DNA of 64,000 nucleotides from Kaistia algarum (GTDB lineage: Bacteria; Pseudomonadota; Alphaproteobacteria; Rhizobiales; Kaistiaceae). Both the position numbers and the translations under genes were made by a program. The stretch spans positions 741,968 through 805,967 of the forward strand of contig NZ_JAPKNJ010000003.1 of assembly GCF_026343945.1 (NCBI RefSeq). Direction: 5' to 3'. The notes beneath the pieces are model-generated. The model ran no database searches and had not been told where the DNA came from. It saw only the letters and a program-made list of their open reading frames with translations. How positions within the stretch are numbered: the first letter of the stretch is position 1; every line of letters begins with the position of its first letter. Below are positions 6,217-63,786 of this stretch, one piece after another.

Positions 6217-6267
6217 TCATTCACCACTGGCTTTGAGGAAGGAGAAGGCGAGGGGAGCGCGGGTCAT
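6217..6267 (-). CDS. 16-codon ORF linking methyltransferase and DUF3850 genes
   Basis: ATG 6267 shares ATGA with the methyltransferase stop and the frame ends within two bases of the DUF3850 start. The peptide would be MTRAPLAFSFLKASGE. It may simply carry ribosomes across the gap (reinitiation) rather than make a functional product. Confidence 0.35.
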   Translation of the reverse strand: MTRAPLAFSFLKASGE

Positions 6268-8450
6268 TCCGCCGCCTCCAGAAACAGCGGCAGCGCGGCT
6301 TCTTCCTCGCCGTCCTCGATCTCTGCCGGGATATAGTTCGCCGCGACGAGGGCGCGGGCCTCGGTCGGGCAGACGGCGTTGCCGCACATGTAGCCCTGCT
6401 GCTCCAGCGTGAAGGCGATCCGGTTTCCGTGCTCGTCGATGCCATGGTCGATGACGTAGCCGGGCGGGAAGCCGTTGGCGTTGAAGCGCTCGCGCGGGGT
6501 CAGCATCCGCATGCCGATATCGACAAGGACGAGCATGACACCCTCGACCTCGATCGTGACGAACTCGCCGCCGTCCCAGCAACCCTCGGCCCGCAGGAAA
6601 TCGGCGACGGCGCGGGCGCGCGGCTCGTGATCGGCCGAGAACGGCGGCACGGCGGCCAAGGCCTCGACGAGGCCGAAGCGGTCGCGCGTCGTCTCCGTCC
6701 GTCCCGGCGTGTCGACCGGCTCGCCGTCCTGCTCATTGCCGTAATAGACGGTCATCAGCGGCAGCGAGACGAGGGCGTCGTGCTGACCCTGCGCCGAGTT
6801 CGTGCGCGCCGGCTCGTCGGCCGGAGCATCCCGCCGGTCGCTGCCGCGCAGTGACAGCATCGAGGCGGCGACGAGCTGCTGTGTCGAGCCCTTGCCGACG
6901 ATCGTGCTGATCGGCTTTGGCAGTTCATGGCCGACAAGCCCGGTATTGTGCTGGGCGACGAAGGAAGCGGCCAGCATGGCCGATTTCCCGCCGCCGCCCG
7001 CCGTATCCGTGCCGTTCGGCGCTTCCGCCGACCCGCCGACCGAATTGCCGAACTGGCGCTGCACATGCACCGCCACCAGCGTCTCGGCGGCGCCATCGGC
7101 GACCAGCGTTCGCCCCGGATGGTCTGCCGGCGAGGACGGCGCGCCAGAATCGCGCATCGTCATCATGTGGACAGCCGCGAGCGATCCCTCATTGCCGGTC
7201 GGCACCGGCGTCGGACCCGGACGATCGGCTGGTGCCGTGCGCGGTTCCTGCCCCTCGCGCTCGCCATAGCGCGGGACGAGATAGGGTGCGAGCAGCACAT
7301 TCTGGTCCTTCGCCGAGGCTGTGAAGGTGTGCGCCGGATCCTCGGCCGACCGGATGCCGCCGCCCTGCTGCGCATAGGCCAAGACAGGCGCGACCAAACC
7401 CATTGGCGCCGCGCCGCCGCCATGCGTCTCGCTGGCATGCGGCGTGATCGTATGGGCCGGCTCGACCACAGGATGGCCGATAGAGTTCTGGCGAAACTTG
7501 GTGACGAAGGGCGTCACCAGCGCATCGTCGCGCTTGCCCGTCATAGCCCCGGCCGGCGCCTCGGCCGAACGGTCCCGCGCCTCGCCCCGGGCCGTGTGGT
7601 TGACCTTGACGAGGAACGGCTTCGGCGCGTCCAGCACATAGCGCTTCACGCCCTTGGCGACGCGGCTCATCGTCTTCGGCGCCAAAGGCCGCTTGGCGCG
7701 GACGCCGTGCCGCTCGCGGATCTCCGCGACGCTGGCGAAGATCGACGGACAGGGCAGACCGAAATCGAGGCAGTCGGCCACCGTCACCCAGGGCCTCAGA
7801 GCCCCTGCCGAGATCGCCGCCGCATCGGCGGCATCGTTCGGATTGCCGAATTCGCGCTCCGGCCAGACGATCGGCTGGCCGTCGCGGCGCATGATCATGT
7901 AGAGCCGCTTGCGGATCGTCCCCGACCCGCTCCACCATGCGCGCCGCTGCCGCCATTCGATGTTCGTGTAGCCGAGCGCCCGCCAGGCGGCGACAAAGGC
8001 CTTGAAGGTCTCGCCCTTGCGTCCGGCCTCACGCCGCCCGTCCTCGCCGAGCGGACCCCAGTCGACATATTCCTCGACATTCTCGAGGAAGACGACGCGC
8101 GGCCGCTGCCGCTTCGGCAGGGCCTTGACCCAGCCGACGATCGCCCAGCCGATGCCTCGCGTCGTCCGGCCGGCTTCGCGGCGCGGCGCGGCGCCCTTGG
8201 CCTTGGAATGATCGGTGCAGTCCGGCGACATCCACAGCATGCCAATCGGCCGCCCGGCGCACATGCCGACCGAATCGACGGTCGCGACGTCCTGGACCAT
8301 ATGGCGCGTGCCGGGATGGTTGACGCGGTGCATGGCAAGCGCGAAGGGGTCATGATTGACCGCGATGTCCGGATCGCGCCCGAGCGCCATGCAGATGCCC
8401 TCGGAAGCCCCGCCGCCGCCGGCAAAACTGTCGATTACCAGCTCACGCAT
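6264..8450 (-). CDS. DNA (cytosine-5)-methyltransferase with repeat-built recognition region
   Basis: 728 residues. C5-methyltransferase motifs are in normal order: I (SFAGGGGAS, 8-16), IV with the catalytic cysteine in SPDC (Cys78; PDC replaces the common PPC), VI (ENV, 123-125), VIII (QRRAWW...RKRLYMI, 168-186), IX (LTPRERFNANGFP, 650-663) and X (CGNAVCP, 689-695). The target-recognition region between VIII and IX is very large (about 277-597) and consists of some nine imperfect repeats of 33-41 residues. It probably methylates phage DNA against host restriction or for regulation. ATG 8450 overlaps the HerA-like gene by 8 bases, so the two are translated together. Confidence 0.95.
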   Translation of the reverse strand: MRELVIDSFAGGGGASEGICMALGRDPDIAVNHDPFALAMHRVNHPGTRHMVQDVATVDSVGMCAGRPIGMLWMSPDCTDHSKAKGAAPRREAGRTTRGIGWAIVGWVKALPKRQRPRVVFLENVEEYVDWGPLGEDGRREAGRKGETFKAFVAAWRALGYTNIEWRQRRAWWSGSGTIRKRLYMIMRRDGQPIVWPEREFGNPNDAADAAAISAGALRPWVTVADCLDFGLPCPSIFASVAEIRERHGVRAKRPLAPKTMSRVAKGVKRYVLDAPKPFLVKVNHTARGEARDRSAEAPAGAMTGKRDDALVTPFVTKFRQNSIGHPVVEPAHTITPHASETHGGGAAPMGLVAPVLAYAQQGGGIRSAEDPAHTFTASAKDQNVLLAPYLVPRYGEREGQEPRTAPADRPGPTPVPTGNEGSLAAVHMMTMRDSGAPSSPADHPGRTLVADGAAETLVAVHVQRQFGNSVGGSAEAPNGTDTAGGGGKSAMLAASFVAQHNTGLVGHELPKPISTIVGKGSTQQLVAASMLSLRGSDRRDAPADEPARTNSAQGQHDALVSLPLMTVYYGNEQDGEPVDTPGRTETTRDRFGLVEALAAVPPFSADHEPRARAVADFLRAEGCWDGGEFVTIEVEGVMLVLVDIGMRMLTPRERFNANGFPPGYVIDHGIDEHGNRIAFTLEQQGYMCGNAVCPTEARALVAANYIPAEIEDGEEEAALPLFLEAAE

Positions 8451-17898: not shown

Positions 17899-18177
17899 TT
17901 ATCTCCCTTTCTTCCGTGCGACTTCGTGCGCATCAATCATCGATACCAGTGCCGAAATGTAGACTGGCTTAATGGGTTTGCGCGCTACAATTGTCTGGTG
18001 TCCGGCCAGATAGAGGCTAATCGCCTTGAAGTGCGAGCCTCCGCCTGACGGTGGTTCAAGCTCTATATCGTGCAAAGCGCACAGCTTTGCCACGTCGTCA
18101 ATCGTCCAGTCGCCTCGCGGGTTCCGGCGCATCTGCTCGAGCAGAGTGACTTTTCCTGCCAAGCCGGTCCCCCTCAC
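17899..18177 (-). CDS. hicA: HicA-family mRNA interferase toxin
   Basis: 92 residues from GTG 18177. The HicA double-stranded-RNA-binding-like fold is clear: LLEQMRRNPRGDWTIDDVAKLCALHDI, the active-site histidine in PSGGGSHFK, and ARKPIKPVYISALVSMID. It would cleave mRNA when free of HicB. The start overlaps the repressor stop as GTGA, so toxin, antitoxin and repressor share one mRNA. This stabilises the prophage or links toxin level to lysogeny. Confidence 0.9.
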   Translation of the reverse strand: MRGTGLAGKVTLLEQMRRNPRGDWTIDDVAKLCALHDIELEPPSGGGSHFKAISLYLAGHQTIVARKPIKPVYISALVSMIDAHEVARKKGR

Positions 18178-18983
18178 ATCCTCGTCACCCGGCCGACGAC
18201 GCGGCCGATAATCCGCAGATTGTCCAGTTCCGCCCGCTCTTCCCGCCGGGCCGCCGGGTTGTCCGAAATGATCGCAACTGCGCGTGGGTCGGAAAAATGG
18301 ACCTTGTTCAACCGTTTCACGCGCGGCGTACCATCGCCGTCATCGAACACATAAACCGCATCCTCGCCGAACGCGTTCTGCCCAGTGTCGACAAGCACGC
18401 GGTCGCCCGGGTCCAGCGTCCCTTTCATGGAGTCGCCGACGACTTCCATGATGACAATACTGCCGGGCCGCGCGCCAAGCTCGTGGCGCAAATAGTCCGG
18501 CGGGAATACCCATTCCGCGACGACGCGATGCCCGGTAACGATGCCTTTCGATTCGATGCCGAATTCCTGTCCGGCCATACCAAGGCCGGCGCCGGGCTTG
18601 CCGTCCAGCTCGGGCGAGGCTCCGGGGATCGCCGGCCGGTACGGCTCTGCAGGTGAAAACGCCGCGCCGCCATCGGGATCAAACTCGGGGTCCGGATCGA
18701 ATTCTCGGCCGGGCGGAACGATCCGACGACCATCGGTTGATGCGCGATCATCCAGTTCCGCTATCGGCGCTTTGCGTGGCTCTTCGCCCAGGATCAACCA
18801 TGCCGCCCTGACGCCGAAACGCCGGGCATACTTGGCGCCGGAATCATTATCGAAGTCCCGCGTTCCATTCTCATGATGGACATAGGTCGGCGCGGATATG
18901 CCAAGCCGCTCCGCGGCCTCAGCCGCAGTCTGAATATTCGCGCCAATGCGGGCGGCGCGGAGTCGATCGCTTTTCTCTGACAT
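18174..18983 (-). CDS. cI/LexA-type phage repressor (XRE helix-turn-helix + S24 peptidase)
   Basis: 269 residues. An N-terminal XRE helix-turn-helix (about 8-60: RIGANIQTAAEAAERLGISAPTYVHHENGTR) is followed by a Pro/Asp-rich linker and a C-terminal S24 domain. The catalytic pair is Ser185 (GDSM) and Lys223 (RVKRLN), 38 apart as in LexA. An Ala-Gly in the linker (137-138) is a likely self-cleavage site, so induction by RecA/SOS is expected. It represses the leftward and rightward promoters. ATG 18983 is used; the frame to 19013 would start upstream of the expected transcript start. Confidence 0.92.
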   Translation of the reverse strand: MSEKSDRLRAARIGANIQTAAEAAERLGISAPTYVHHENGTRDFDNDSGAKYARRFGVRAAWLILGEEPRKAPIAELDDRASTDGRRIVPPGREFDPDPEFDPDGGAAFSPAEPYRPAIPGASPELDGKPGAGLGMAGQEFGIESKGIVTGHRVVAEWVFPPDYLRHELGARPGSIVIMEVVGDSMKGTLDPGDRVLVDTGQNAFGEDAVYVFDDGDGTPRVKRLNKVHFSDPRAVAIISDNPAARREERAELDNLRIIGRVVGRVTRM

Positions 18984-19004
18984 CCGGAAAGGATCGCATC
19001 GGTT

Positions 19005-19033
19005 GCAATACAAGGGGGATTGACCAAATTCAA
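19005..19033 (-). promoter_or_regulatory. Repressor-operon promoter (PRM-like)
   Basis: Minus strand: -35 TTGAAT (19028-19033), 17-base spacer, -10 TATTGC (19005-19010). It overlaps the rightward promoter back to back. The transcript would start about 15 bases before the repressor ATG. Confidence 0.65.
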
Positions 19034-19066
19034 TCCGGATCGTATGGATAAATCCACATTGTATTG
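19006..19066. promoter_or_regulatory. Candidate repressor/Cro operators
   Basis: Two dyads share one centre region: CAATACAA (19006-19013) with TTGTATTG (19059-19066), and GGATTG (19017-19022) with CAATCC (19031-19036). The GTATTG half-site recurs twice at the leftward promoter, which suggests a common binding protein. The assignment is inference from symmetry. Confidence 0.55.
19020..19048 (+). promoter_or_regulatory. Rightward early promoter (PR-like)
   Basis: -35 TTGACC (19020-19025), 17-base spacer, -10 TATGGA (19043-19048), about 27 bases before the Cro-like start. Confidence 0.68.
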
Positions 19067-19075
19067 GAGCGACCC

Positions 19076-19264
19076 GTGACGAACGACGAAGTCAGGCAAA
19101 TCCGGGAGCGGCTTGGTTGGTCTCAGAAGCGGCTCGCCGAATTTCTTGGGGTGTCGCAGCCGACCGTTTTCAGGATCGAGAACGACCAGCCAGTTCCGGG
19201 CCCGATCGAACGCTTGCTGCGTCAGGTTTCCGTGTCGGCGGAGCAAGAGGCCCGCACCTCATGA
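19076..19264 (+). CDS. Cro-like XRE helix-turn-helix regulator
   Basis: 62 residues, a bare HTH: NDEVRQIRERLGWSQKRLAEFLGVSQPTVFRIENDQ. First rightward gene, opposite the cI-type repressor, so it is the expected lytic antagonist. GTG 19076 is preferred because GGAG lies 7 bases upstream; TTG 19064 would place the start on the SD. The stop overlaps the next ATG. Confidence 0.85.
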   Translation: MTNDEVRQIRERLGWSQKRLAEFLGVSQPTVFRIENDQPVPGPIERLLRQVSVSAEQEARTS

Positions 19265-19359
19265 CCGCGTGGCTCTCCGTCTCCGGCTACCTTGCCTTCG
19301 CGATCCGCGCCGGCGCCGTCGTCTACCTCGCAGCTCTCGCCATGGCGGTGCTGGCATGA
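19261..19359 (+). CDS. 32-residue membrane micro-protein
   Basis: MTAWLSVSGYLAFAIRAGAV start, one hydrophobic segment covering most of the chain. ATGA overlaps join it to the Cro-like gene and to the next micro-protein. Unrecognised. Confidence 0.6.
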   Translation: MTAWLSVSGYLAFAIRAGAVVYLAALAMAVLA

Positions 19360-19457
19360 CCGCCGCCAAGTTCCGCTCCCGCGCATGGATCATCGTCATC
19401 GGCCTGCTCATCGCGTTCTGGGCCATCGTCACGCTTGTCTCGTGCGGTGTCCTATGA
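19356..19457 (+). CDS. 33-residue membrane micro-protein
   Basis: Basic N-terminus (MTAAKFRSR) and one membrane segment (AWIIVIGLLIAFWAIVTLVS). ATGA overlaps on both sides. Unrecognised. Confidence 0.6.
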   Translation: MTAAKFRSRAWIIVIGLLIAFWAIVTLVSCGVL

Positions 19458-19594
19458 GCGACGGGTGGGCGATCACGCGCGGGCTCGTGCTGATCGTCAT
19501 CATCTGCATCGTCGCGCTTGCTGCTGCCCATGCCAAGCGGGCCGCGCGCATCGAAGCGCCGACCATCAACGATCTCCAGCGGGGGCCATCATGA
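19454..19594 (+). CDS. 46-residue membrane micro-protein
   Basis: One membrane segment (ITRGLVLIVIICIVALAAAH) and a basic cytoplasmic tail. Third member of the coupled chain of micro membrane proteins after the Cro-like gene. Confidence 0.6.
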   Translation: MSDGWAITRGLVLIVIICIVALAAAHAKRAARIEAPTINDLQRGPS

Positions 19595-19811
19595 TTCCCG
19601 CGTCCTCTATCGCTTCGCGTGCGACCTCCTCCCCGCGCGCGATGCCGGCGGCGCGCTGTGGTTTCCTGCCCGTGGCGCGCCGTTCCGTTTCATCGAAGTC
19701 GATGGTGGTCCGCGCTGTCGATCTTCCATCCCCCACGGTCCTTTCGTCTCCCGGCTCTTCGCCGCTGTGTCTCTCGCAAAGCCACAGTGCCAGCGAAGGG
19801 GACCAGAGTGA
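19530..19811 (+). CDS. Possible small protein, frame and start uncertain
   Basis: Between the membrane micro-proteins and the GTG at 19808 two frames are open. This one (93 residues from ATG 19530) has the high third-position GC of its neighbours and protein-like sequence (RVLYRFACDLLPARDAGGALWFPARGAPFRFIEVDGG), and ends with GTGA overlap into the next gene, but it starts inside the preceding gene. The alternative, ATG 19591 to 19863, has the ATGA start but Ser/Arg-rich non-coding-like sequence. Function unknown. Confidence 0.4.
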   Translation: MPSGPRASKRRPSTISSGGHHDSRVLYRFACDLLPARDAGGALWFPARGAPFRFIEVDGGPRCRSSIPHGPFVSRLFAAVSLAKPQCQRRGPE

Positions 19812-20263
19812 CGGTGCATCGAACCGCGCCCACGGACAATTCAACCGCAACTACGGAGCCTGAAATGGAATGGGCGGCGACGCCTCAGGAGCTTATCGGA
19901 CGAATCGACCCTGTCTCCGCTGAGGCGGGGGCTGCGAAGCGGCTGATCAATTCGGTCACGAAGGCTGTCGCGCCGTACCTCAAGGATGCGGGTCGGGACC
20001 CGATGAAGCCGAGCCGTGTCGAGGACATCTGGCGGGGCGAGGCCATACCTCGCTTTTGGGAAATGGATGCGCTTCGCCGAGCTGCTGCCAGCGATGCAAT
20101 GGCCAGGGAGGCCAAGCGTGAATTCACCGAATTGGAACGACGCATCGTGCGGCTCGAGGAAGCCTTGGCTCTTCGATCTGCGGAACTGGGCGGCGCTGAA
20201 GCTGATGCGCTTCGGGAAATCAGCGGCCGTTCTGATCGCGCCTTGGATCGAGGAGGACGATGA
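19808..20263 (+). CDS. Hypothetical helical phage protein
   Basis: 151 residues from GTG 19808 (GTGA overlap), or 132 from ATG 19865. Helical, with VEDIWRGEAIPRFWEMDALRRA and a charged coiled coil (EFTELERRIVRLEEALALR). The first half resembles short alphaproteobacterial proteins linked to XRE regulators, but I cannot name it. Confidence 0.65.
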   Translation: MTVHRTAPTDNSTATTEPEMEWAATPQELIGRIDPVSAEAGAAKRLINSVTKAVAPYLKDAGRDPMKPSRVEDIWRGEAIPRFWEMDALRRAAASDAMAREAKREFTELERRIVRLEEALALRSAELGGAEADALREISGRSDRALDRGGR

Positions 20264-20559
20264 TGAGGCGCGCTAGTTTCGCCGCCGCTGCCGCCGGCTC
20301 TCTTTTGGCAGCAATGAGCATCGCCCCATCCACGCCGATCGCTGAACAGACCACGGTCGTAAGGGCCTCGCCAGCGGCCGACACACGCACGGCTCCGGCG
20401 CCGGCCGCCGCGAACGAGATCGTCAAGGCGGTTCGGCAAGCCGACCCGCTCATCTGGCGCGGCGGGGGCTCGCCGACGAAGCACAAGAACCGCCGCCCCG
20501 GCGAGCGAGCACATCGTCGCTGGCGCAAACGCCGTTCGTCAGGAAGGGCACGCCGATGA
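20260..20559 (+). CDS. Putative exported small basic protein
   Basis: 99 residues with a signal-peptide-like N-terminus (MMRRASFAAAAAGSLLAAMS), an Ala/Pro linker and a very basic C-terminus (RRPGERAHRRWRKRRSSGRARR). Unrecognised. ATGA overlaps on both sides. Confidence 0.6.
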   Translation: MMRRASFAAAAAGSLLAAMSIAPSTPIAEQTTVVRASPAADTRTAPAPAAANEIVKAVRQADPLIWRGGGSPTKHKNRRPGERAHRRWRKRRSSGRARR

Positions 20560-20741
20560 CCCGGTCGATCCCCGTCCTCCTCTACGGCGAGACACCAAGG
20601 ACTTCCCCGTCCTTCATCGCGCGCCTCTTGGCCGCCGCCGATGTCTCGATCGGGGATGACCTGCCCGATTTCGAGCTCCCCCGATTTCCGTGGATCCGTC
20701 GCTCCCCCGGCGATGGTCGAGGCCGCGACACGGCCGCCTGA
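20556..20741 (+). CDS. Small hypothetical phage protein
   Basis: 61 residues (IPVLLYGETPRTSPSFIARLLAAADVSIGDDLPDFELPRF), unrecognised. ATG 20556 overlaps the previous stop. Confidence 0.55.
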   Translation: MTRSIPVLLYGETPRTSPSFIARLLAAADVSIGDDLPDFELPRFPWIRRSPGDGRGRDTAA

Positions 20742-20753
20742 GAGGACAAGAGC

Positions 20754-21317
20754 ATGGCACGAGGCAGGAAGAAGGCAGCGCAGCAGGATCTCGGTCCGAA
20801 GCGGCTGCCGAGCGCTGACGAGGTCAAGAAGGCCGTCGAGGAAGCCAATCGGCAGAAGGCCCATGCCGCCGAATATTCCGGTCTCGCCGGGCAGGCGACT
20901 AAGACCTTCACGGAACGCTACGGCATCCATCGCAAGGCGTTCGGCTGGGCGACATCGCTCGAGAAAATGGATGACCAGAAGCGCCAGTCCTGCATCCGGG
21001 ATTTCATGGTGCTGGCCGATCGGCTCGGGTTCTTCTCGCAGACCGACATGTTCCACGACCTGGGCGATGCCGTCGCCGACGTCATCAACGACGCCGCCAT
21101 CGGCAATGATGCGGAACGCGCCGCGCGAACCGAGGAAGAACTCGAGCAGCCCATCGCGGCGATGGACACGACCGTCACCGAACGGCTGTCGGAGCAGGAG
21201 CAATGGGATTCTGCCGGCGAGGTCGCCAAGGCCAAGGAATCGATCAAGCGGAAGTCGTCGGGCAAGGCTGACCCAGCGCTCGTCGCCGACATCAACAACG
21301 CGCTGCGGCCGAACTGA
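20754..21317 (+). CDS. Hypothetical phage protein, helical
   Basis: 187 residues. The conserved-looking core is ERYGIHRKAFGWATSLEKMDDQKRQSCIRDFMVLADRLGFF, followed by an acidic helical tail. It recurs in alphaproteobacterial phages near replication genes, and a DNA-associated role is possible but not shown. SD GAGAGGA precedes ATG 20754. Confidence 0.72.
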   Translation: MARGRKKAAQQDLGPKRLPSADEVKKAVEEANRQKAHAAEYSGLAGQATKTFTERYGIHRKAFGWATSLEKMDDQKRQSCIRDFMVLADRLGFFSQTDMFHDLGDAVADVINDAAIGNDAERAARTEEELEQPIAAMDTTVTERLSEQEQWDSAGEVAKAKESIKRKSSGKADPALVADINNALRPN

Positions 21318-21331
21318 GGGCAGGGCAGACA

Positions 21332-21910
21332 ATGGCGGACAGGAGCATCCTGTGTCTCGACCTGGCGACGGTCGTCGGCGTTGCGGAGGGCCCTGTCGGA
21401 GAGCTTCCGCGCTCGACTGTCTGGCGCCTGGCCGAAGCGCCAGGCACTTCGCATGGCGAGCGCTATGCCGTGCTCTTCCGCCACCTCTGGGAGCGCACCG
21501 AAGCATTCAAGCCGGCTGCCATCTACTATGAGGCGCCGTTGCCGCCGACGCATATGCGCGGCCAGTCCAACATAGACACCGCCTCGTTCCTCATGGGGCT
21601 GCCGGCCATCGTCAAGCTGGTCGGGCAATTGCGGGGGATCTGGCGCGTCGAGCCCTGCAATGTCCAAGATGTGAGGGGTCATTTTATCGGCGGGCGGCAA
21701 TTCCTTTTCCAGGGAAAGCCGGTGGTCGGGCGTCGCAATCTCGATAGCAAGGCCGCGAAGTTCTGCACCGTCGCCCGGGCCCGTGAGCTCGGCGCCTCGC
21801 CGGCCACTCATGATGAGGCCGACGCCATTGCGCTGCACTCCTATGCCTCGGCGCTGATCCGCCCGGAGACGGGCACCGCGTCGACACCGCTGTTCGCAGG
21901 AGCGGCGTGA
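21332..21910 (+). CDS. RuvC-fold Holliday junction resolvase, phage type
   Basis: 192 residues of the RNase H-like/RuvC fold. Metal-binding acids are Asp10 (CLDLATVVGVA), Glu67 (IYYEAPL), Asp161 and Asp164 (HDEADAIAL). It should cut four-way junctions made during phage recombination or before packaging. It lies in the rightward replication operon and its stop overlaps the next start. Confidence 0.85.
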   Translation: MADRSILCLDLATVVGVAEGPVGELPRSTVWRLAEAPGTSHGERYAVLFRHLWERTEAFKPAAIYYEAPLPPTHMRGQSNIDTASFLMGLPAIVKLVGQLRGIWRVEPCNVQDVRGHFIGGRQFLFQGKPVVGRRNLDSKAAKFCTVARARELGASPATHDEADAIALHSYASALIRPETGTASTPLFAGAA

Positions 21911-22110
21911 TGCAGAAGCGCTCGCTCTCCCGCCAGCTTGAATCGACCCGCACCGCGATTCGCATCGTTCACGGCGGCACCACTCCGCGTCCGTCCGAGC
22001 GGGCGATGATCGCCGAGGACCTCGAATGCGTGCTCGGCACGCTGCAATGGCTCCAGGCCAACGAGGAAATGATCCGGAAGATCAAGGCAGAACAAGGAGA
22101 CGCATCATGA
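21910..22110 (+). CDS. Small helical phage protein
   Basis: 66 residues from ATG 21910 (TGATG overlap), GTG 21907 also possible. Helical (RAMIAEDLECVLGTLQWLQANEEMIRKI). Unrecognised. Confidence 0.62.
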   Translation: MQKRSLSRQLESTRTAIRIVHGGTTPRPSERAMIAEDLECVLGTLQWLQANEEMIRKIKAEQGDAS

Positions 22111-22661
22111 GTACGATTACGGACGCCATCGATCTGATCGTTGTCGAACGCGACGCGAAGGCGGCAGAGATCCAGCTGCTGACGTCGCAGGTGTCGGGCC
22201 TCGATACTGCCATCGCGGCGCTCCAGGCCATCTGCCTGCGCGGCGACAAAACCAAGCTGCCCTTCAGGCCCGCTGGTGACCAGCAGGAAGAACGCGCGGG
22301 AGAGCAGGACACGCCTGCAGCGTCGATCGGGCAAGGCGACGCGCCGGCCAGCCCTGTCGAGGGCGCACCGAAGACGATGGCCTCGATCGTCGCGGCGGTC
22401 GACACTCAGCCGGCGGCGGTCGGTGCGGTCTCGGCAGGCGAAGCGCTGGCGACCCTGATCCTCAACGACATGCCGGCGCTGATGACCCGGTTCCGTCACG
22501 GCCCGAATGCCAGGGATCTGATGCTCGAATACGGCGCCGACGGCAATCGTGTCCGCGATGCGTGCCGCCGGCTTCACAACTCGGGTCGCGCTCTGTTTGC
22601 GGTCAATGAAGAGACGGGGACCCTTCACCTCACGCCGCGCCAGCAGAAGAGCGCAGCATGA
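22107..22661 (+). CDS. Hypothetical phage protein with possible DNA-binding C-terminus
   Basis: 184 residues: helical N-terminus (AKAAEIQLLTSQVSGLDTAIAALQAI), disordered Ala/Pro middle, and a C-terminal small domain (GPNARDLMLEYGADGNRVRDACRRLHNSGRALFAVNEETGTLHL) that looks like a winged helix. Unrecognised. It lies directly upstream of the GcrA-like gene with ATGA coupling. Confidence 0.65.
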   Translation: MSTITDAIDLIVVERDAKAAEIQLLTSQVSGLDTAIAALQAICLRGDKTKLPFRPAGDQQEERAGEQDTPAASIGQGDAPASPVEGAPKTMASIVAAVDTQPAAVGAVSAGEALATLILNDMPALMTRFRHGPNARDLMLEYGADGNRVRDACRRLHNSGRALFAVNEETGTLHLTPRQQKSAA

Positions 22662-23593
22662 CCCACTGGACCGATGACCAGATCGCCGATCTGAGGGACT
22701 ATTTCGCCCTCGGCTACAAGCTGGACGAAATTCTAACGGAGACCGATCGCCCTCTCGGCGAGGTCGAAGCAAAGATGCGCGAGCTTGGGATCTGGGCTTC
22801 GGCCACATCTCCAGAGCGCGGATCGGAGAGCCGCGAGGACGGCCCGGAGTTCCGCGCTCCGGCTCCGTCGTCCGAAGCCGACGTTGGCGACGAGAAGCCC
22901 AACGGAACAGCGGCACCGCTTTCGAACCTGCCGGACGCCTTGGCGCACGGCGGAAGGACGGAGGGGGATAGCCGACCAGCGCCGGCATCTTCCTCCGTCG
23001 ATGATCGCCACCACCCAGCACCGCGGGCCGCGCACCCATCGGACGGCAAGCGATGGGATGACCTGTCGCAGGATGGCCGCCTCTATCAGGTCCGCACTCT
23101 GGCCGACGGCCGGGCATCGTTCACAGAGATCGGCCGCATGCTGGGCACCAGCCGGAACGCGATCAGTGGCTTCGTCGACCGAAACCGGGACGAACTCGGC
23201 ATCGCCAAGACGCAGCCGGGGAAGAACGGTGGTGGGCGGCCCAAGTCCAAGGCCGAGCCGAAGCCGAAGGCAATCCCAGCCCCTCGGAAGGCAACGACGA
23301 CGCCGCCGCGCTCGCCCTCCATGGTGACGCCGCTTCCAGCCCCGAAGCTGGTCAAGCTGCCACCGGCGCCGATCGTACCTCCCGATCCTTCGGCAGTGAT
23401 CGCACTCGCCGATGCCGGCGCGCTGCGCTGCCACTTCCCGCTCTGGGCTCACCATGAACCGGCGCCGAACATGGAAGACGGCAAGGCCTGCGGCATGCCG
23501 GTGCGTCCCGGCGCGCCCTACTGCGAGCATCACTTCCGGCTCACCCACCAGCCGCCCGCCGCGCGCCGGCCGTCTGAAGCGGAGGCCGCATGA
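22658..23593 (+). CDS. GcrA-like cell-cycle transcription regulator, phage encoded
   Basis: 311 residues. The C-terminus matches GcrA (LRCHFPLWAHHEPAP ... KACGMPVRPGAPYCEHHFRLTHQPP). Two helix-turn-helix segments are visible: residues 1-45 (HWTDDQIADLRDYFALGYKL) and about 145-175 (FTEIGRMLGTSRNAISGFVDRN), the second like GcrA's DNA-binding helix. A Pro/Lys-rich linker separates them from the C-terminal domain. In alphaproteobacteria GcrA binds sigma70 and activates promoters carrying CcrM-methylated GANTC. A phage copy may redirect that circuit; this is inference. At 311 residues it is much longer than host GcrA (about 170). Confidence 0.8.
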   Translation: MTHWTDDQIADLRDYFALGYKLDEILTETDRPLGEVEAKMRELGIWASATSPERGSESREDGPEFRAPAPSSEADVGDEKPNGTAAPLSNLPDALAHGGRTEGDSRPAPASSSVDDRHHPAPRAAHPSDGKRWDDLSQDGRLYQVRTLADGRASFTEIGRMLGTSRNAISGFVDRNRDELGIAKTQPGKNGGGRPKSKAEPKPKAIPAPRKATTTPPRSPSMVTPLPAPKLVKLPPAPIVPPDPSAVIALADAGALRCHFPLWAHHEPAPNMEDGKACGMPVRPGAPYCEHHFRLTHQPPAARRPSEAEAA

Positions 23594-23883
23594 TGTCGGA
23601 CATGCCGATCCCGCTTCCTGCCGCCAGCTTTGGTGAGCTTGCGGTCGACCTGTTTTTCGAAGCCCGCGAAAGGGCCGGCATTGTGCATCAGCTTGAGGTC
23701 TACGCCGCAAGGTGGCCGAGCTTCACCGTCAACCATACCCTCGCCGAGGCCAAAGCCGCCGCCGATCGAACCGCGCAGTTCTACCACTTCGTCAAAGCCA
23801 TGATCCCTTACGAGGCGGAGATCCGGGCCATGGTTGCGGCGATGCCGGTGTCGCCCGCTCTTTCGAAGGAGAAGGCGGCATGA
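23590..23883 (+). CDS. Small helical phage protein
   Basis: 97 residues, helical (LAVDLFFEARERAGIVHQLEVYAARWPSFTVNHTLAEAKAAADRT). Unrecognised. It is coupled to both neighbours by ATGA and lies just upstream of the helicase-methyltransferase. Confidence 0.68.
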   Translation: MMSDMPIPLPAASFGELAVDLFFEARERAGIVHQLEVYAARWPSFTVNHTLAEAKAAADRTAQFYHFVKAMIPYEAEIRAMVAAMPVSPALSKEKAA

Positions 23884-26405
23884 CGATCGACGCCTATCGG
23901 CAGTTTCTCGCTGAGAAGGTGCCCCTGGCACCGTCTGATGGCATCGTCGTGTCGCTCGACGAAGTGACGGCAGAGCCGATCCTGAAGCCCCATGTTCGCG
24001 CGATCGTTCCATGGGCGCTTCGTGGCGGCCGTCGCGCGCTCTTCCTGAATTTCGGCTTGCACAAGACGCGCCTGCAGCTCGAACTCATGCGCCTTGTTCT
24101 GGCGAAGGTCGGCGGCCCCGTCCTGATCGTGATGCCGCTTGGTGTCCGCCAGGAGTTTCGCCGCGATGCCGTGGCGATCGGCGTTGCCATCAAGTTCATT
24201 CGGTCGGCGGGCGAGATCGACGCCGCCGCAATCAACATCACGAACTACGAGACGATCCGCGACGGCAAGCTTGATCCGAATCTGTTCATAGCCGTCTCGC
24301 TGGATGAAGCCGCGGTGCTGCGCTCCTACGGCTCCAAAACGTTCCAGGAGTTCCTTCCGCTCTTCGAACGGGTCCGGTTCAAATTCGTGGCGACGGCGAC
24401 GCCCTCGCCGAACCGGACCAAGGAACTGATCCACTATGCCGGTTTCCTCGGAGTCATGGATACCGGCCAGGCCCTGACGCGGTTCTTCCAGCGCGATTCG
24501 GAGAGCGCCGGCAATCTGACGCTCTATCCCCACAAGGAAGAGGAATTCTGGCTCTGGGTGCATTCCTGGGCGATCTTCGTCCAGGCGCCATCCGATCTCG
24601 GTTTTTCGGACGATGGCTATGTCCTGCCGCCGGTGACCGTGAACTGGCACGAGGTCCCGGTCGACCATGCCACAGCGGCCCCGGATCGTGACGGGCAAGG
24701 GGCGCTGTTCCGCAATGCCGCCCTAGGCCTCTCCGAAGCCGCTGGCGCCAAGCGTGACAGCCTGCCGGCGAGGATCGAGAAGCTGACAGAGATCATCGCC
24801 GAGGATCCGGAAAGCCACATGTTGATCTGGCACGACCTCGAGGCGGAGCGCCGCGCGATCGAGGCAGCCGTGCCGGACGCCCTGTCTATTCACGGCTCGA
24901 TGGATCTCGATATCCGCGAAGCGCGTGTGGTCGAATTCTCCGACGGCAAGTTCCGCCATTTCGCGACCAAGCCCATCCTCTCCGGCGCTGGCTGCAATTT
25001 CCAGCGCCACTGCCACCGGGCCGTCTTTCTTGGCATCGGCTTCAAGTTCCACGACTTCATTCAGGCCTTTCACCGCATCGTCCGCTTCGGCCAAGCCGAG
25101 GCGTGCACTCTCGACCTCATTTATTCCGAAGACGAACGAGAGATCCGGCGAGAGCTGGAACGTAAATGGGCTGAGCACGATCGCATGATGGCCAAGATGA
25201 GCGAGATCATCCGCGCTTACGGCCTCGACCAGTTGCCGATCGACGACGTTCTGTCACGCTCGGTCGGTGTTGCGAGGCGCGAAATCATTGGCGAGCGCTT
25301 CCGCATCGCTCACAATGATTGTGTCGATGAGGCGCGCCGGACGCCGGACAACAGCGTCCACCAGATCATCTCGTCGATCCCGTTTTCGAACCACTACGAA
25401 TACACGGCCAGCTATAACGATTTTGGCCATACCGACGACAATGATCATTTCTGGCGTCAAATGGATTTTCTGACGCCGGAACTTCACCGGATCCTTCAGC
25501 CCGGACGGCTGGCCTGCATCCACGTCAAGGACAGGATTCTGTTCGGCAACGTCACCGGCGAGGGTGTCCCGACCGTCTCGCCGTTCCACGCCGAGGCGAT
25601 CTTTCACTACCGCCAGCACGGCTTCCAGTATTTCGGGATGATCACGATCGTCACAGACGTCGTCAGGGAGAACAACCAAACCTATCGGCTCGGATATACC
25701 GAGATGATGAAGGACGGGACCAAGATGGGCGTTGGCTGCCCCGAATATGTCCTGCTTTTCCGCAAGCGACAGTCGGATCGGTCGAAGGGTTACGCCGATC
25801 TGCCGGTCAGGAAAACCCCGGAAGACTACAGCCTGGCGCGCTGGCAGATCGACGCGCATGCGTTCTGGCGGTCTTCGGGCGATCGGCTGTTGACCGTCGA
25901 TGAACTCGCCGCGCTTGGGCCGGCGAAACTCGCCAAGTTCTTCACCGACATGTCATTGGCCGAACCTTATGACCACGAGCGTCATGTCGCTCTGGGCGAG
26001 GCGATAGAGGCCCGCCGGCCGGGCGCTCTGCCGCGGACCTTCATGGCGCTGGCGCCGGGCTCGCACGATCCCGCCGTATGGCACGACATCGTTCGGATGC
26101 GGACGCTGAACGGCAACCAGTCCAGCCGCAACGTCGAGAAGCACGTCTGCCCGTTGCAGTTCGACATCGTCGACCGGCTCATCGATCGCTATTCCAACCC
26201 GGACGAGATCGTCTACGACCCCTTCGGCGGCCTCATGACGGTGCCCTATCGCGCGATCTTGAAGGGGCGCCGGGGCGCGGCGTCCGAGCTCCACACCGAC
26301 TATTTCCGGGACGGTCTCCACTATTGCCGGGAGGCAGAGGCCAAGCGGGCCGTTCCCGGTCTTTTCGACACCATAGGCGACGATATGACGGAGGCGGCGG
26401 AGTAA
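23880..26405 (+). CDS. SNF2-like helicase fused to a beta-class DNA methyltransferase
   Basis: 841 residues. The N-terminal half is a superfamily-2 helicase-like domain: degenerate motif I (NFGLHKTRLQ, about 57-66), motif II LDEAA (near 143) and motif VI QAFHRIVRFGQ (near 395-405). The C-terminal half is an amino-methyltransferase in beta-class order: motif IV-like SSIPFS (near 498; SIPF in place of the usual S/D/N-PP-Y/F/W), then motif I DPFGG (near 780). It should bind S-adenosylmethionine and methylate adenine N6 or cytosine N4. SIPF-type proteins recur in phages and integrated elements. It sits two genes after the GcrA-like regulator. Confidence 0.88.
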   Translation: MTIDAYRQFLAEKVPLAPSDGIVVSLDEVTAEPILKPHVRAIVPWALRGGRRALFLNFGLHKTRLQLELMRLVLAKVGGPVLIVMPLGVRQEFRRDAVAIGVAIKFIRSAGEIDAAAINITNYETIRDGKLDPNLFIAVSLDEAAVLRSYGSKTFQEFLPLFERVRFKFVATATPSPNRTKELIHYAGFLGVMDTGQALTRFFQRDSESAGNLTLYPHKEEEFWLWVHSWAIFVQAPSDLGFSDDGYVLPPVTVNWHEVPVDHATAAPDRDGQGALFRNAALGLSEAAGAKRDSLPARIEKLTEIIAEDPESHMLIWHDLEAERRAIEAAVPDALSIHGSMDLDIREARVVEFSDGKFRHFATKPILSGAGCNFQRHCHRAVFLGIGFKFHDFIQAFHRIVRFGQAEACTLDLIYSEDEREIRRELERKWAEHDRMMAKMSEIIRAYGLDQLPIDDVLSRSVGVARREIIGERFRIAHNDCVDEARRTPDNSVHQIISSIPFSNHYEYTASYNDFGHTDDNDHFWRQMDFLTPELHRILQPGRLACIHVKDRILFGNVTGEGVPTVSPFHAEAIFHYRQHGFQYFGMITIVTDVVRENNQTYRLGYTEMMKDGTKMGVGCPEYVLLFRKRQSDRSKGYADLPVRKTPEDYSLARWQIDAHAFWRSSGDRLLTVDELAALGPAKLAKFFTDMSLAEPYDHERHVALGEAIEARRPGALPRTFMALAPGSHDPAVWHDIVRMRTLNGNQSSRNVEKHVCPLQFDIVDRLIDRYSNPDEIVYDPFGGLMTVPYRAILKGRRGAASELHTDYFRDGLHYCREAEAKRAVPGLFDTIGDDMTEAAE

Positions 26406-26935
26406 TGCACTGCGAAGGCGAATTCGATCGCACCCATATCCCGCGCGCCGCGAAGTTCTTGTCGTGCCGTCGTGCCCTGGCGGTGCTCCTGAAGCACCAC
26501 GGCTATATCCAGCCTGAAGCGGGGGCCTCGCCGCAGGCCATCATGATCCGGAACAGGATCGCGGATGCCGTCCGCCGCGTCGGGTCATCGGACGATGAGG
26601 TCCGTCATCAGCAGCGTCTCGCCGCGCGCCGAGATCGGGATCGGCTCCGTCGCGCCCGCCAGCGGATCGAGAAGGGGGCGCCGGCAACAATCGAGGATAT
26701 GATCGCCACCGTTACCTCCGCCCATGGCATCGCCATCGACGATGTCATGCGGCGCCATACCTTCGCCGACAGAGATTCGCCTCAGGCCCGTGCCCTTGCC
26801 GAGATCTGTTACCGCGCCAAGGCCGCCGGTTATGCCCTGCCGGCGATCGGGAAGGCACTCGGCGGCCGGCATCACACTACGATCATCTACCAGGCATCCA
26901 GGCATTGCGCGTGTGGCGGGAGCATTCCGAATTGA
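26405..26935 (+). CDS. DnaA domain-IV-like DNA-binding protein (no ATPase)
   Basis: 176 residues. The C-terminal 80 match DnaA domain IV: IEDMIATVTSAHGIAIDDVMRRHTFADRDSPQARALAEICYRAK, then the signature GGRHHTTI (163-170) that reads DnaA boxes. The N-terminal 90 are basic and helical with no Walker motifs, so the DnaA ATPase is absent. It precedes dnaB directly, so it probably marks the phage origin or recruits helicase. The start overlaps the previous stop as TAATG. Confidence 0.85.
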   Translation: MHCEGEFDRTHIPRAAKFLSCRRALAVLLKHHGYIQPEAGASPQAIMIRNRIADAVRRVGSSDDEVRHQQRLAARRDRDRLRRARQRIEKGAPATIEDMIATVTSAHGIAIDDVMRRHTFADRDSPQARALAEICYRAKAAGYALPAIGKALGGRHHTTIIYQASRHCACGGSIPN

Positions 26936-28359
26936 ATGCCCATGCCCTCCCGGAACCGCGGCCGCTGCCGCAGAACATCGAAGCCGAGCAAGCCCTGCTC
27001 GGTGCCATCCTGGTCAACAACAAGGCGTTTGATCGTGTCGCCGGGTTTCTTGAGGCGGATCACTTCATCGAGCCCCTGCATGGTCAGATCTACGACGTTG
27101 CGGCGAAGCTGATCCGCTCGGAGCGGATAGCGAACCCGGTGACGATGCGTCACTTCATGCCGCCAGACCTCGCCGTCGGCGAACTGAATGCGGCGCAATA
27201 TCTGGCCCGGCTCGCGGCTGAGGCCACGACGGTCATCAACGCCGAGGATTTCGGTCGCGCCATTTATGATCTCGCCGTGAGGCGGTCGCTGATCAAGATC
27301 GGCGACGATGTCGTCAATATCGCCTATGACGCGCCGGCTGACCTCAACCCGGCCGAACAGATAGCGCGCGCCACGGGGCGCCTTGAGGCGCTGTCCGGTG
27401 TCGCCGAGAACGTCGACCCCGCGGCGGTGTCGATCACCCTCAAGGATGCTGTCGTCAAGGCGCTACAGCATGCCTCCGCGGCAGCGGCAAATGGAAACAG
27501 CGCCGCCGGCATCACGACCGGACTGGTCGATCTCGATCGCATGACTGGCGGCTTTGCGCCGGGAGATCTCATCCTGGTCGGGGGTCGGCCTTCGATGGGC
27601 AAGAGCGCGCTTGCTGGTTGCCTGGCACGGGCCGCGGCACGATCAGGCATCGGCGCCGGCATCGCATCGTTGGAAATGAGCGACGTCAGCCTGACGACGC
27701 GCATGTTGACCGACGAGGCCTTTGATCACGTCGGCTCCATCGCCTATGAACAGGTGGCGAAGGGCCATTATGGCTCGCACCTCGGCGCGATCGAGACTGC
27801 ATCATTCGAGCTTGCGAAGCTTCCGGTCCTGATCCACGACCGCGGCGGACTGTCGATTACCGGCATCACGACGCTGGCGCGATCCTGGGAGCGAGCATTC
27901 AAGCGCGACGGCTGCAATCTCGGCATCCTCATCGTCGACTATCTCCAACTGGTGCGTCCAGCGGATCGCTATCGCGGCGACCGCAACAATGAGGTCAGCG
28001 AGGTTTCGGCCGGGCTCAAGGGGCTTGCCAAGTCCCTCGGCATCGCCGTCGTAGCGCTGTCGCAGCTGTCCCGGAACTGCGAGACCCGCGAAGACAAGAG
28101 GCCGATGTTGTCGGACCTCCGCGATTCCGGATCGCTGGAACAGGATGCCGACAAGGTCATCTTTCTCTATCGCGACCACTACTACCTCAAGAAGCAGAAG
28201 GCCGACACCATCGAGGATCAGGCCATGCTCGAGCACACCGAGAACCAGCTTGAGGCCATCGTCGCCAAGAACCGGATGGGGCCGACAGGCACGGTGAAGC
28301 TCTTCATCGACCTTCCCGCGTCTGCGATCCGAAATCTCAAGATCGAAAGCATGTTCTGA
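26932..28359 (+). CDS. dnaB: Replicative DNA helicase DnaB
   Basis: 475 residues from TTG 26932, which overlaps the upstream stop and has GGGAG nearby; GTG 26911 is an alternative. The N-terminal domain (LPQNIEAEQALLGAILVNN) and RecA-like domain are standard: Walker A GGRPSMGKSA, Walker B ILIVDYLQLV, SQLSRNCETREDKRPMLSDLRDSGSLEQDAD (the canonical block), and the arginine region KNRMGPTG. It unwinds DNA at the phage fork. Confidence 0.95.
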   Translation: MNAHALPEPRPLPQNIEAEQALLGAILVNNKAFDRVAGFLEADHFIEPLHGQIYDVAAKLIRSERIANPVTMRHFMPPDLAVGELNAAQYLARLAAEATTVINAEDFGRAIYDLAVRRSLIKIGDDVVNIAYDAPADLNPAEQIARATGRLEALSGVAENVDPAAVSITLKDAVVKALQHASAAAANGNSAAGITTGLVDLDRMTGGFAPGDLILVGGRPSMGKSALAGCLARAAARSGIGAGIASLEMSDVSLTTRMLTDEAFDHVGSIAYEQVAKGHYGSHLGAIETASFELAKLPVLIHDRGGLSITGITTLARSWERAFKRDGCNLGILIVDYLQLVRPADRYRGDRNNEVSEVSAGLKGLAKSLGIAVVALSQLSRNCETREDKRPMLSDLRDSGSLEQDADKVIFLYRDHYYLKKQKADTIEDQAMLEHTENQLEAIVAKNRMGPTGTVKLFIDLPASAIRNLKIESMF

Positions 28360-28532
28360 TGAAGCGCTCCGGTCTGCCCGCGCCATTGGTCCCGCCGGAA
28401 GTCGATCTTCGCGACACGCCCCCGCCGCGCGATCTCTTCATTAGCATGGCAATGCAACAGTTCGGTCTAAGTCGCGAGGCGGCAACGGCGCTGGTCGATG
28501 ATGCTCTTCAGGGGGTCAACAATGTCCATTGA
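28359..28532 (+). CDS. 57-residue hypothetical protein
   Basis: A Pro-rich start then a helical half (DLFISMAMQQFGLSREAATALVDDALQGVNNV). It starts on the last base of the dnaB stop (TGATG) and its end overlaps the next gene by 11 bases. Unrecognised; such small helical proteins beside dnaB can be loaders or regulators, which is speculation. Confidence 0.55.
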   Translation: MKRSGLPAPLVPPEVDLRDTPPPRDLFISMAMQQFGLSREAATALVDDALQGVNNVH

Positions 28533-29544
28533 AGGTCTTCCGGCACCGCTAACACCATCGGATTGCGATCTCCGCGGAATGCCGTACATGCCGGTCGATA
28601 TCGTCCGTCTCTTTGACAGCGATCTATACGCACTGGCGACAGGAGATGAGTTTAAGGCCGCATTCTCACTTTGGGGACGTAGCTTTCTGCAAGTCCCCGC
28701 GGCAAGCATTCCCGACGATGACCGAATTCTCGCCCATCTCAGCGGCGCAGGGACCCGATGGAAAAAGGTTCGCGACATGGTTTTGCGGGGCTGGATTAAA
28801 TGCAGCGACGGCAGGCTCTACCATCCGGTTGTCGCGGAAAAGGCTTTGGATGCGTGGGATGCAAGGAGTTCGCAGAGAGCCAGAACTGAGGCCGCTCGCG
28901 CCGCGCGCGCGGCTCAGAGACAGACCGGCGCCGCCCAACGTAACAATGTAAGCGACAGAGGCCAGACAGACGATGTGACAACGTCTGTGACAGAGCTTGT
29001 AACAGGATCCAAGGGAGAGGGAGAGTTAAGTAAAGAAGAAGAAACCTCACTTCGTTCGGTTGGCGCGCCGCAGTCGCGCTCCGACCAGAAAACGCCCGAA
29101 AAGCCGAAATCGAAGACCGGAACCCGGATTGCACCCGATTGGTCGGCCAACACGGATGATCGCGAATTTGCGCGAACTCTCGGCTTTGGCGATGTCGGGA
29201 TCGACCGGGAATGCGGCAGATTCCGCGACTATTGGATCGCCAAACCGGGACGGGACGGCGTCAAGCTCGATTGGTCCGCCACCTTCCGGAACTGGTTTCG
29301 TCGAGCCGCGGAGCAGGCTGGGATTGCGCCAATTGCCGAGGTTATCCAACTCCCGACGCAAGAAGATCGAACCCGTTGGCAGGCGCGCATCTCATGGGCC
29401 CGTCGACACAAATCCTGGTCGAGAGCTTGGGGGCCATTGCCGTCGCAGCCAGGGTGCCGAGCGCCGCCTGACCTGCTGAAGCCTGACGATGGAGCAGGCT
29501 GGGCTGAAGCCGATGAAGCCGAAATGCGAAGGGAAGCGCAGTGA
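28522..29544 (+). CDS. DUF1376/YdaU-like replication protein
   Basis: 340 residues. The N-terminal winged-helix domain (MPYMPVDIVRLFDSDLYALATGDEFKAAFSLWGRSFLQVPAASIPDD ... GWIKCSDGRLYHPVVAEKALDAW) is DUF1376, found at the N-terminus of phage replication initiators. A low-complexity charged linker follows, less GC-rich than the flanks, then a C-terminal domain (FARTLGFGDVGIDRECGRFRDYWIAKPGRDGVKLDWSATFRNWFRRA) typical of phage O-like proteins. ATG 28522 has GGGGG 8 bases upstream. Confidence 0.85.
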   Translation: MSIEGLPAPLTPSDCDLRGMPYMPVDIVRLFDSDLYALATGDEFKAAFSLWGRSFLQVPAASIPDDDRILAHLSGAGTRWKKVRDMVLRGWIKCSDGRLYHPVVAEKALDAWDARSSQRARTEAARAARAAQRQTGAAQRNNVSDRGQTDDVTTSVTELVTGSKGEGELSKEEETSLRSVGAPQSRSDQKTPEKPKSKTGTRIAPDWSANTDDREFARTLGFGDVGIDRECGRFRDYWIAKPGRDGVKLDWSATFRNWFRRAAEQAGIAPIAEVIQLPTQEDRTRWQARISWARRHKSWSRAWGPLPSQPGCRAPPDLLKPDDGAGWAEADEAEMRREAQ

Positions 29545-29849
29545 TGGAATCGGAAGACCAAGCGATCGATCGGATCCTGTGGCAGGGCAGGCAATGGCGC
29601 GTCGTCGACGGCTTCCTGCTCGCCGATACCGAAAGCGGCGTTTACGACGTTCCGTGGGCTCGCCTTGGGCCTGCGATGCCGGGGATTCACTCGACCATCC
29701 ACGCCGATTTGATCGGAAAGAGGTGGGTCGATTTCGACGATTTCTGTGCCGCCTACCGTCATGCCGTCGTCTTCGCCGGGACCGAATCCCACGACATTGA
29801 CGCGATGGAAGCCGGTGCACGGCAGATCAAATCGGGTGAGCGGATATGA
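29544..29849 (+). CDS. Hypothetical phage protein
   Basis: 101 residues from ATG 29544 (GTG 29541 possible). Acidic, with ILWQGRQWRVVDGFLLADTESGVYDVPW. Unrecognised. It is ATGA-coupled to the NusG paralogue. Confidence 0.62.
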   Translation: MESEDQAIDRILWQGRQWRVVDGFLLADTESGVYDVPWARLGPAMPGIHSTIHADLIGKRWVDFDDFCAAYRHAVVFAGTESHDIDAMEAGARQIKSGERI

Positions 29850-30472: not shown

Positions 30473-30640
30473 ATGATCGTCGCCTACATCTTGACATCTT
30501 CGATCAATTGCTCCCATATCCTGCGTCAGGATGATTCGGGTGCTCTGAGAGGACCGGCGCTGCGGCGCTGAAGCAATTCTCCGGCCTGGACCCAGGAGCC
30601 GAATGTGGCTTCCGCGATGTTGTCCTATCGACCAGATTTC
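30473..30640 (+). promoter_or_regulatory. Gap before late genes, candidate late promoter
   Basis: No gene. A perfect -35 TTGACA (30491-30496) is followed after 18-20 bases by weak -10 candidates (CATATC 30515-30520 or TATCCT 30517-30522). A short dyad CCTG-CGT-CAGG lies just downstream. The poor -10 suggests dependence on an activator or that this is only a leader. Confidence 0.4.
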
Positions 30641-30717: not shown

Positions 30718-30746
30718 ATTCCCTCCACCACCAAAGGCCGATCGCC

Positions 30747-31028: not shown

Positions 31029-31054
31029 GAGGGGCGCCGTTGCGCCACGGGTGA

Positions 31055-61291: not shown

Positions 61292-61331
61292 GGTTTACAA
61301 AACCGCTGCTCTACCGCTGAGCTAATCCGGC
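61292..61331 (-). pseudogene. Truncated tRNA-Thr (TGT), 5' half: right attachment site
   Basis: On the minus strand the 5' 40 bases of tRNA-Thr are intact: acceptor GCCGGAT, D stem GCTC/GAGC and anticodon loop TTTGTAA (anticodon TGT). Identity ends in the anticodon stem (GGTTTTGTAAACC), where a tRNA would continue with GC; no T arm, 3' acceptor strand or CCA follows. The palindromic anticodon stem-loop is a classic tyrosine-recombinase crossover site. The matching 3' half should lie left of base 1. Confidence 0.85.
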
Positions 61332-61604
61332 ATTGCCCTCCGTTTAGAGAGGAGGCGCGCCCCCGGTCAAGGCCGGCGGCGACACAGTTCGCTTTTTGCG
61401 GGCGCAAGGCCTCGCGATCGACCTTAGGGGCGGGCGAGGATGGGCATGTCGCGGGCCGGGGCGAGGGGCGCCATTTCCTGACGGCGATCTCTTGGGTAAT
61501 CTCCGGCCGACTCGCCAGTCGGAAGTCGGGGCCATGCTGGTACCTGCATTCGGCGGCGTCGCTTGCGGCCTGCCGACGCCGGGCAGGCACAACCGGGATA
61601 TGAG
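61332..61604. other. Host intergenic region
   Basis: Between the tRNA-Thr 5' end and the AI-2E-family gene. It should hold the tRNA-Thr promoter and the permease leader. I see no convincing ORF; several antisense frames are open only because of GC content. Confidence 0.5.
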
Positions 61605-63767: not shown

Positions 63768-63786
63768 TTCGTCGGAACGTCGGCGC

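What the first reader, a model, noticed from the sequence alone, without database searches (positions are those of the whole stretch)
22658..23593. Phage-encoded GcrA-like regulator beside two DNA methyltransferases
Seen: a GcrA-type C-terminus (PYCEHHFRLTHQP block) and a GcrA-like helix (EIGRMLGTSRNAISGFVDRN), with a second N-terminal helix-turn-helix. Known: host GcrA couples sigma70 promoters to CcrM methylation at GANTC. Inferred: the phage uses its own regulator, perhaps with its own methyltransferase two genes away, to time gene expression by DNA methylation state or to redirect the host cell cycle. The extra N-terminal HTH and doubled length suggest a changed DNA specificity.
Basis: partly seen in the sequence, partly recalled or inferred. 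Interest (0 to 1): 0.78.

Follow-up and report, generated by a model that had tools for sequence, protein, structure and literature searches.

The report
Prophage GcrA-type cofactor with doubled DNA-binding head
A dormant virus in a Kaistia-like bacterium carries its own altered copy of GcrA, a protein that helps such bacteria switch on genes at methylated DNA; viruses were already known to carry GcrA, but this copy appears to have two DNA-gripping heads instead of one.

Summary
ORF 22658-23593 (311 aa) matches Pfam GcrA above its cut-off (51.3 bits), lies in the early operon of a prophage inserted at a tRNA-Thr, and keeps a GcrA-like sigma-interacting C-terminus. The N-terminal 'extra HTH' is best read as a second, degenerate GcrA-type DNA-binding domain: its profile match exceeds 300 of 300 column shuffles, and in the predicted model it superposes on 44 of 45 residues of the Caulobacter GcrA domain, though generic HTH domains score almost as well. 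Phage-borne GcrA is itself known (phiCbK gp222 and others). The proposed pairing with the phage's own methyltransferase is not supported: that enzyme is a helicase-methyltransferase fusion without CcrM signature; 73 of 80 viral loci with it show no GcrA in the stretch held; the sister prophage keeps GcrA but lacks it. The host has CcrM, and the GcrA-bearing fusion loci are among the GANTC-poorest. Most likely: an early sigma70 cofactor that reads host CcrM methylation. Sigma contact and methylation dependence remain untested.

The parts
22658..23593 (+). GcrA-family gene, 311 aa (whole protein)
   Evidence: PF07750 51.3 bits, cut-off 26.9; 7ye1_G E 5.2e-07; NCBIfam GcrA equivalog only 28 of 280 bits
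22658..22795 (+). N-terminal head, residues 1-46: HTH best matching a degenerate GcrA DNA-binding domain
23054..23203 (+). Second head, residues 133-182: GcrA-type DNA-binding domain
   Evidence: hhalign 96.5% to a profile of 49 GcrA domains; part of the PF07750 match; pLDDT blocks 91-95
23423..23560 (+). C-terminal tail, about residues 256-301: sigma-interacting-domain-like, C258, C278, C289, H292
   Evidence: these four invariant in 26 aligned sequences; alignment to 7ye1_G and weakly 5yix_B (E 0.16)
22107..22661 (+). 184-aa gene upstream, overlapping by 4 bases; kept in the sister prophage
   Evidence: L054 hit E 3.4e-38
23590..23883 (+). 97-aa gene between GcrA and the helicase-MTase; kept in the sister prophage
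   Evidence: L054 hit E 3.5e-28
23880..26405 (+). Helicase-methyltransferase fusion, 841 aa
   Evidence: phrog_16 E 6e-115, residues 7-835; PF01555 residues 493-809
26405..26935 (+). DnaA C-terminal-like protein
   Evidence: PF08299 E 1.2e-06 but under its cut-off, 28.9 of 31.5 bits
26905..28359 (+). DnaB-like replicative helicase
   Evidence: PF03796 E 6.1e-75
18174..18983 (-). CI-type repressor (S24 peptidase)
   Evidence: PF00717 E 4.3e-13, phrog_4 E 1.2e-32
6264..8450 (-). C5 cytosine methyltransferase, the second MTase of the finding, about 14 kb away
   Evidence: PF00145 44.8 bits, cut-off 22
30491..30537 (+). Candidate promoter TTGACA-N18-CATATC followed by GATTC (30533-30537, in a YGAKTCG match); possible target, not shown
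   Evidence: hexamers kept in the sister prophage, GANTC not kept; not listed by the promoter scan
61292..61334 (.). attR-like 43-bp direct repeat of the tRNA-Thr that lies left of the window

Best explanation
The gene encodes a prophage sigma70 cofactor of the GcrA family with two DNA-binding heads. SHOWN by sequence or prediction: GcrA-family match; one GcrA DNA-binding domain (133-182); an N-terminal domain most like a second, degenerate one (1-46); a conserved sigma-interacting-like tail; a place in the early replication operon of a prophage; a host with its own GcrA and CcrM and GANTC-poor DNA. INFERRED: when repression ends the operon is expressed; the tail binds domain 2 of host sigma70; the heads hold promoter DNA at GANTC sites methylated by host CcrM and so speed open-complex formation at phage promoters, perhaps the one near 30491, and/or at host S-phase genes. 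As Caulobacter GcrA is reported to be a dimer (PMC3667746, passages), the tandem heads may act as a built-in pseudo-dimer, the degenerate head clamping DNA rather than reading the site.
Confidence: 0.55

Rival explanations
1. The first reader's module: the regulator reads marks laid by the phage's own helicase-methyltransferase two genes on, a self-contained epigenetic timer.
For: The two genes are one gene apart; GcrA lies upstream on the same strand of the fusion gene in 6 other viral loci, 12 to 5018 bases before it; Caulobacter phage DMCA has GcrA, two genes, then an adenine MTase.
Against: 73 of 80 fusion loci show no GcrA in the stretch held; the sister prophage stretch has GcrA without the enzyme; MTase-like ORFs in only 6 of 23 other GcrA-centred stretches, with no matched control; no CcrM match.
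Confidence: 0.12
2. It interferes with the host GcrA: the prophage protein occupies sigma70 or GANTC promoters and blocks rather than activates.
For: Family resemblance at both the head and the tail; the N-terminal head lacks the RNAVIGK-type recognition motif (sequence); some related prophage copies keep heads but not a GcrA tail.
Against: The window's own tail keeps the family's invariant residues, which fits an active cofactor.
Confidence: 0.13
3. It serves phage DNA replication or origin recognition, not transcription.
For: Neighbours are a DnaA C-terminal-like protein, DnaB and a replication protein; GcrA lies in the same stretch as DnaB in L054, L056, L075 and L076.
Against: It leaves the sigma-interacting-like tail unexplained; the other GcrA-centred stretches gave no DnaB hit with the window's DnaB as query.
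Confidence: 0.1

Closest known systems
GcrA of Caulobacter crescentus (PDB 7ye1, 5yiv, 5yix)
   Same: GcrA-type DNA-binding domain, long disordered linker, C-terminal sigma-interacting-like domain
   Different: 311 aa instead of 173, an extra N-terminal GcrA-type head, low identity, prophage gene
Phage GcrA homologs: phiCbK gp222, Atu_ph08 gp5, Caulobacter phage DMCA
   Same: GcrA-family genes on phage genomes
   Different: tblastn with the window protein found none of the 50,697 phage records; the DMCA protein as read has one HTH at its start
P0002 and the sister prophage protein L036
   Same: Same architecture of two heads; 64% identity for P0002, 67% over residues 1-48 for L036
   Different: Context of P0002 not seen; L036 lacks a Pfam-recognisable tail and its operon lacks the fusion enzyme
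Double-HTH prophage GcrA proteins L062, L066/P0003, L073, L056
   Same: Two HTH-like regions (by inspection), GcrA family match
   Different: The first HTH of the L062/L066/L073 group matches GcrA domains at only 6.8%, the second of L056 at 2.9%; L056 has no GcrA tail match
phiLM21 methyltransferase with CcrM-like specificity
   Same: Prophage MTase in a CcrM host (title seen in a reference list; listing)
   Different: The window's fusion enzyme has no CcrM match

Membership tests
GcrA family (Pfam PF07750) | Profile match above the curated cut-off | tested here: met
   51.3 bits, cut-off 26.9
GcrA family (Pfam PF07750) | GcrA-type DNA-binding domain | tested here: met
   Residues 131-185 match 49 GcrA domains at 96.5%
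GcrA family (Pfam PF07750) | Conserved sigma-interacting tail residues | tested here: met
   C258, C278, C289, H292 invariant in 26 sequences
GcrA family (Pfam PF07750) | Binding to sigma70 domain 2 | not testable with these tools
   Needs a binding assay
GcrA family (Pfam PF07750) | Preference for m6A-methylated GANTC DNA | not testable with these tools
   Needs a binding assay
GcrA equivalog (NCBIfam NF050816) | Score above the equivalog cut-off | tested here: not met
   28 bits against 280; it is not filed as the cell-cycle GcrA itself
GcrA equivalog (NCBIfam NF050816) | One DNA-binding domain at the N-terminus | tested here: not met
   Canonical domain starts near residue 133, behind another HTH
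Tandem GcrA-type heads | N-terminal domain is GcrA-type by fold | tested here: inconclusive
CcrM methyltransferase (for the fusion enzyme) | CcrM or RAMA profile match | tested here: not met
   No NF050803 match at E 0.001; BLASTP to host CcrM E 0.038; the only RAMA match in the genome is in host CcrM
phrog_16 helicase-methyltransferase (fusion enzyme) | Match across nearly the whole protein | tested here: met
   E 6e-115, residues 7-835 of 841

The most novel reading that the evidence does not exclude
A double-headed phage GcrA is a class of methylation reader of its own: two tandem GcrA-type domains in one chain engage DNA together, for instance both strands of one GANTC or two neighbouring sites, so that the phage senses the replication-dependent full or hemi-methylated state set by host CcrM and times lytic or late transcription by it.
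Probability: 0.12. Interest if true: 0.72.

Novelty: new variant of a known kind. Interest (0 to 1): 0.42.

Why it matters
Phage GcrA homologs have been noted since 2012 with their function only proposed in the passages that I read. A doubled DNA-binding region, with related prophages that keep or lose single parts, gives a natural comparison set for asking how GcrA reads methylated promoters, whether two heads are needed, and whether temperate phages time themselves by the host's CcrM methylation rather than by a methyltransferase of their own.

Tried and rejected
GANTC enrichment at phage promoters: 13 of 83 sites lie in the 7922 intergenic bases of 64000, a weak excess, and none lies in the cI/cro gap. 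The order-2 expectation is imperfect: control palindromes in the window gave O/E 0.60 to 1.45 against 0.30 for GANTC, and a mostly host stretch (L077) gave 0.54, so the depletion at the host side is milder there.

Promoter scan of 18500-31600: 1 promoter-like site against 2.1 expected in shuffles; the 30491 site was not listed, as its second hexamer fails the scan's rule.

GcrA-methyltransferase module: the 80 fusion loci are the best 80 of 247 confirmed and several are short; GcrA in 7 of 80, or 6 of 79 without the own prophage. Fisher p 0.00015 (7 of 25 against 0 of 55) used a threshold of 0.35 chosen after seeing the data, and p 0.0005 without the own locus. The rank test without the own locus gives p 0.0009, and 0.0096 among loci with G+C of at least 0.6. 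GcrA is an alphaproteobacterial gene, so host range alone could give this link. DnaB loci made no useful control: GcrA in 1 of 50 (the own prophage), 2 of 50 with O/E under 0.35.

Structure: no Foldseek PDB match at E <= 0.001. Sequence searches of the PDB with each HTH alone listed no GcrA. The N-terminal domain's single-sequence score against GcrA domains is 23.2; a phage XRE-type HTH of the window (19076-19264) scores 21.4, so the margin over a generic HTH is small. N-terminal domain against the protein's own second head: 0.3%, so a recent duplication within the gene is not supported.

Related loci: two scans with alignment A3 added nothing beyond the own prophage. The homolog searches found only P0002 as a close relative; these score only candidates that share short words.

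Literature: the listings showed no paper on a tandem-head GcrA; I read passages only. PMC5887438 and PMC4647560 are not held and are known here only as cited by others.

Full report
What is there. The ORF at 22658-23593 is exact. Its product matches Pfam GcrA at 51.3 bits (cut-off 26.9), residues 143-304, and Caulobacter GcrA by sequence (7ye1_G, E 5.2e-07). It falls far short of the curated GcrA equivalog (28 of 280 bits), so it is a member of the wider family, not the cell-cycle GcrA itself. The genome has three GcrA-family places: the 180-aa host GcrA (187.9 bits), a second copy at 77.3 bits, and this one. The closest named relative of the host GcrA is that of Kaistia hirudinis, 75% identical, so the host is Kaistia-like.

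Setting. The window holds most of a prophage: a tyrosine integrase at its left edge beside a tRNA-Thr, a 43-bp repeat of that tRNA at 61292-61334 as the other end, a CI-type repressor and replication genes, and terminase, portal, capsid, tail and lysozyme genes. IMG/VR holds it as a 58,416-base contig. The gene lies in the rightward early operon and overlaps both neighbours by 4 bases.

Tail. C258, C278, C289 and H292 are invariant in 26 aligned sequences; a metal site is an inference. In the sister copy L036 Pfam matches only profile positions 10-104, and in L056 only 2-51: their tails are changed or lost.

The methyltransferase idea. The near enzyme is a helicase-methyltransferase fusion (phrog_16, E 6e-115) with no CcrM match. 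Of the best 80 viral loci with it, 7 have GcrA in the stretch held, the own prophage included. These seven have GANTC O/E of 0.15 to 0.34 and all lie among the lowest 25 of 80; without the own locus the rank test gives p 0.0009, or 0.0096 at G+C of at least 0.6. Reading: GcrA is carried where the host methylates GANTC, while the fusion enzyme is used more widely. The sister prophage stretch L054 (19 kb) keeps 187-aa gene, RuvC-like gene, 184-aa gene, GcrA, 97-aa gene, DnaB, NusG-like gene and terminase in order, but gave no hit for the fusion enzyme or the DnaA-like gene. Among the 23 other stretches, 6 had an MTase-like ORF by three query proteins; two of the 23 (L059, L070) gave no GcrA hit, and there was no matched control. 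Caulobacter phage DMCA does have GcrA, two genes, an adenine MTase, one gene, DnaB, so such neighbourhoods recur.

Host methylation. The host has CcrM: NF050803 at 631.6 bits, under that model's cut-off of 830, with a RAMA domain. GANTC is rare: 75 found against 253.5 expected in 1-58409; 8 against 22.3 in 58410-64000, part of which is still prophage. Within the prophage the extended motif YGAKTCG is intergenic only at 30532 and 10833. The first lies just behind TTGACA-N18-CATATC, ahead of a tRNA-Met and the structural genes; hexamers and tRNA are kept in the sister prophage, the GANTC is not. It is a candidate target, no more.

Mechanism. Passages of PMC7403470 say that Caulobacter GcrA binds sigma domain 2 by its tail and methylated promoter DNA by its head; passages of PMC3667746 that it is a dimer in solution and prefers methylated sites. 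By analogy the prophage protein would join host RNA polymerase and activate at methylated promoters, with two heads standing in for the dimer. That is inference. Against it, passages of PMC9437464 report no positional asymmetry of GcrA-type sites in phage genomes.

Novelty. Phage-borne GcrA is known: phiCbK gp222 (PMC3556154, passages), Atu_ph08 gp5 (PMC6630229, passages), a table entry for phiLM21-like prophages (PMC12429752, passages), a coral-associated virus (PMC11309003, passages); the host GcrA hits 32 of 50,697 phage records. A Brevundimonas prophage-like operon expressed in a GcrA-dependent manner is also reported (PMC7987155, passages). A GcrA with two GcrA-type heads did not appear in the listings. 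I file this as a new variant of a known kind.

Noticed in passing
L060 6182-8850 (own genome, contig C1): The second GcrA-family copy of the genome lies next to an ORF resembling the window's C5 methyltransferase (E 1.1e-39), with a CI-like ORF nearby; it looks like another prophage.
   Followed up: partly
window 29846-30472: NusG-domain protein (PF02357, E 3e-06) in the prophage, kept in the sister prophage; a phage antitermination factor is possible.
   Followed up: no
window 30641-30717: tRNA-Met (cat) between early and structural genes; a similar tRNA sits at the same place in the sister prophage L054.
   Followed up: partly
window 19006-19066: Inverted repeat CAATACAA ... TTGTATTG in the gap between the CI-type repressor and the next rightward gene, a possible operator pair.
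   Followed up: no
L036 1396-2196 and L056 6920-7657: GcrA-family prophage proteins whose tail is not matched by Pfam GcrA; L056 has a weak zinc-ribbon match there instead (PF09297, under its cut-off).
   Followed up: no
L075 3885-4496 (Synechococcus phage Ssp-JY42): A GcrA gene and GANTC O/E of 0.40 in a phage recorded for a cyanobacterium; the true host may be an alphaproteobacterium.
   Followed up: no
control genomes: The GcrA family search also rang above its cut-off in Sulfolobus acidocaldarius, an archaeon.
   Followed up: no
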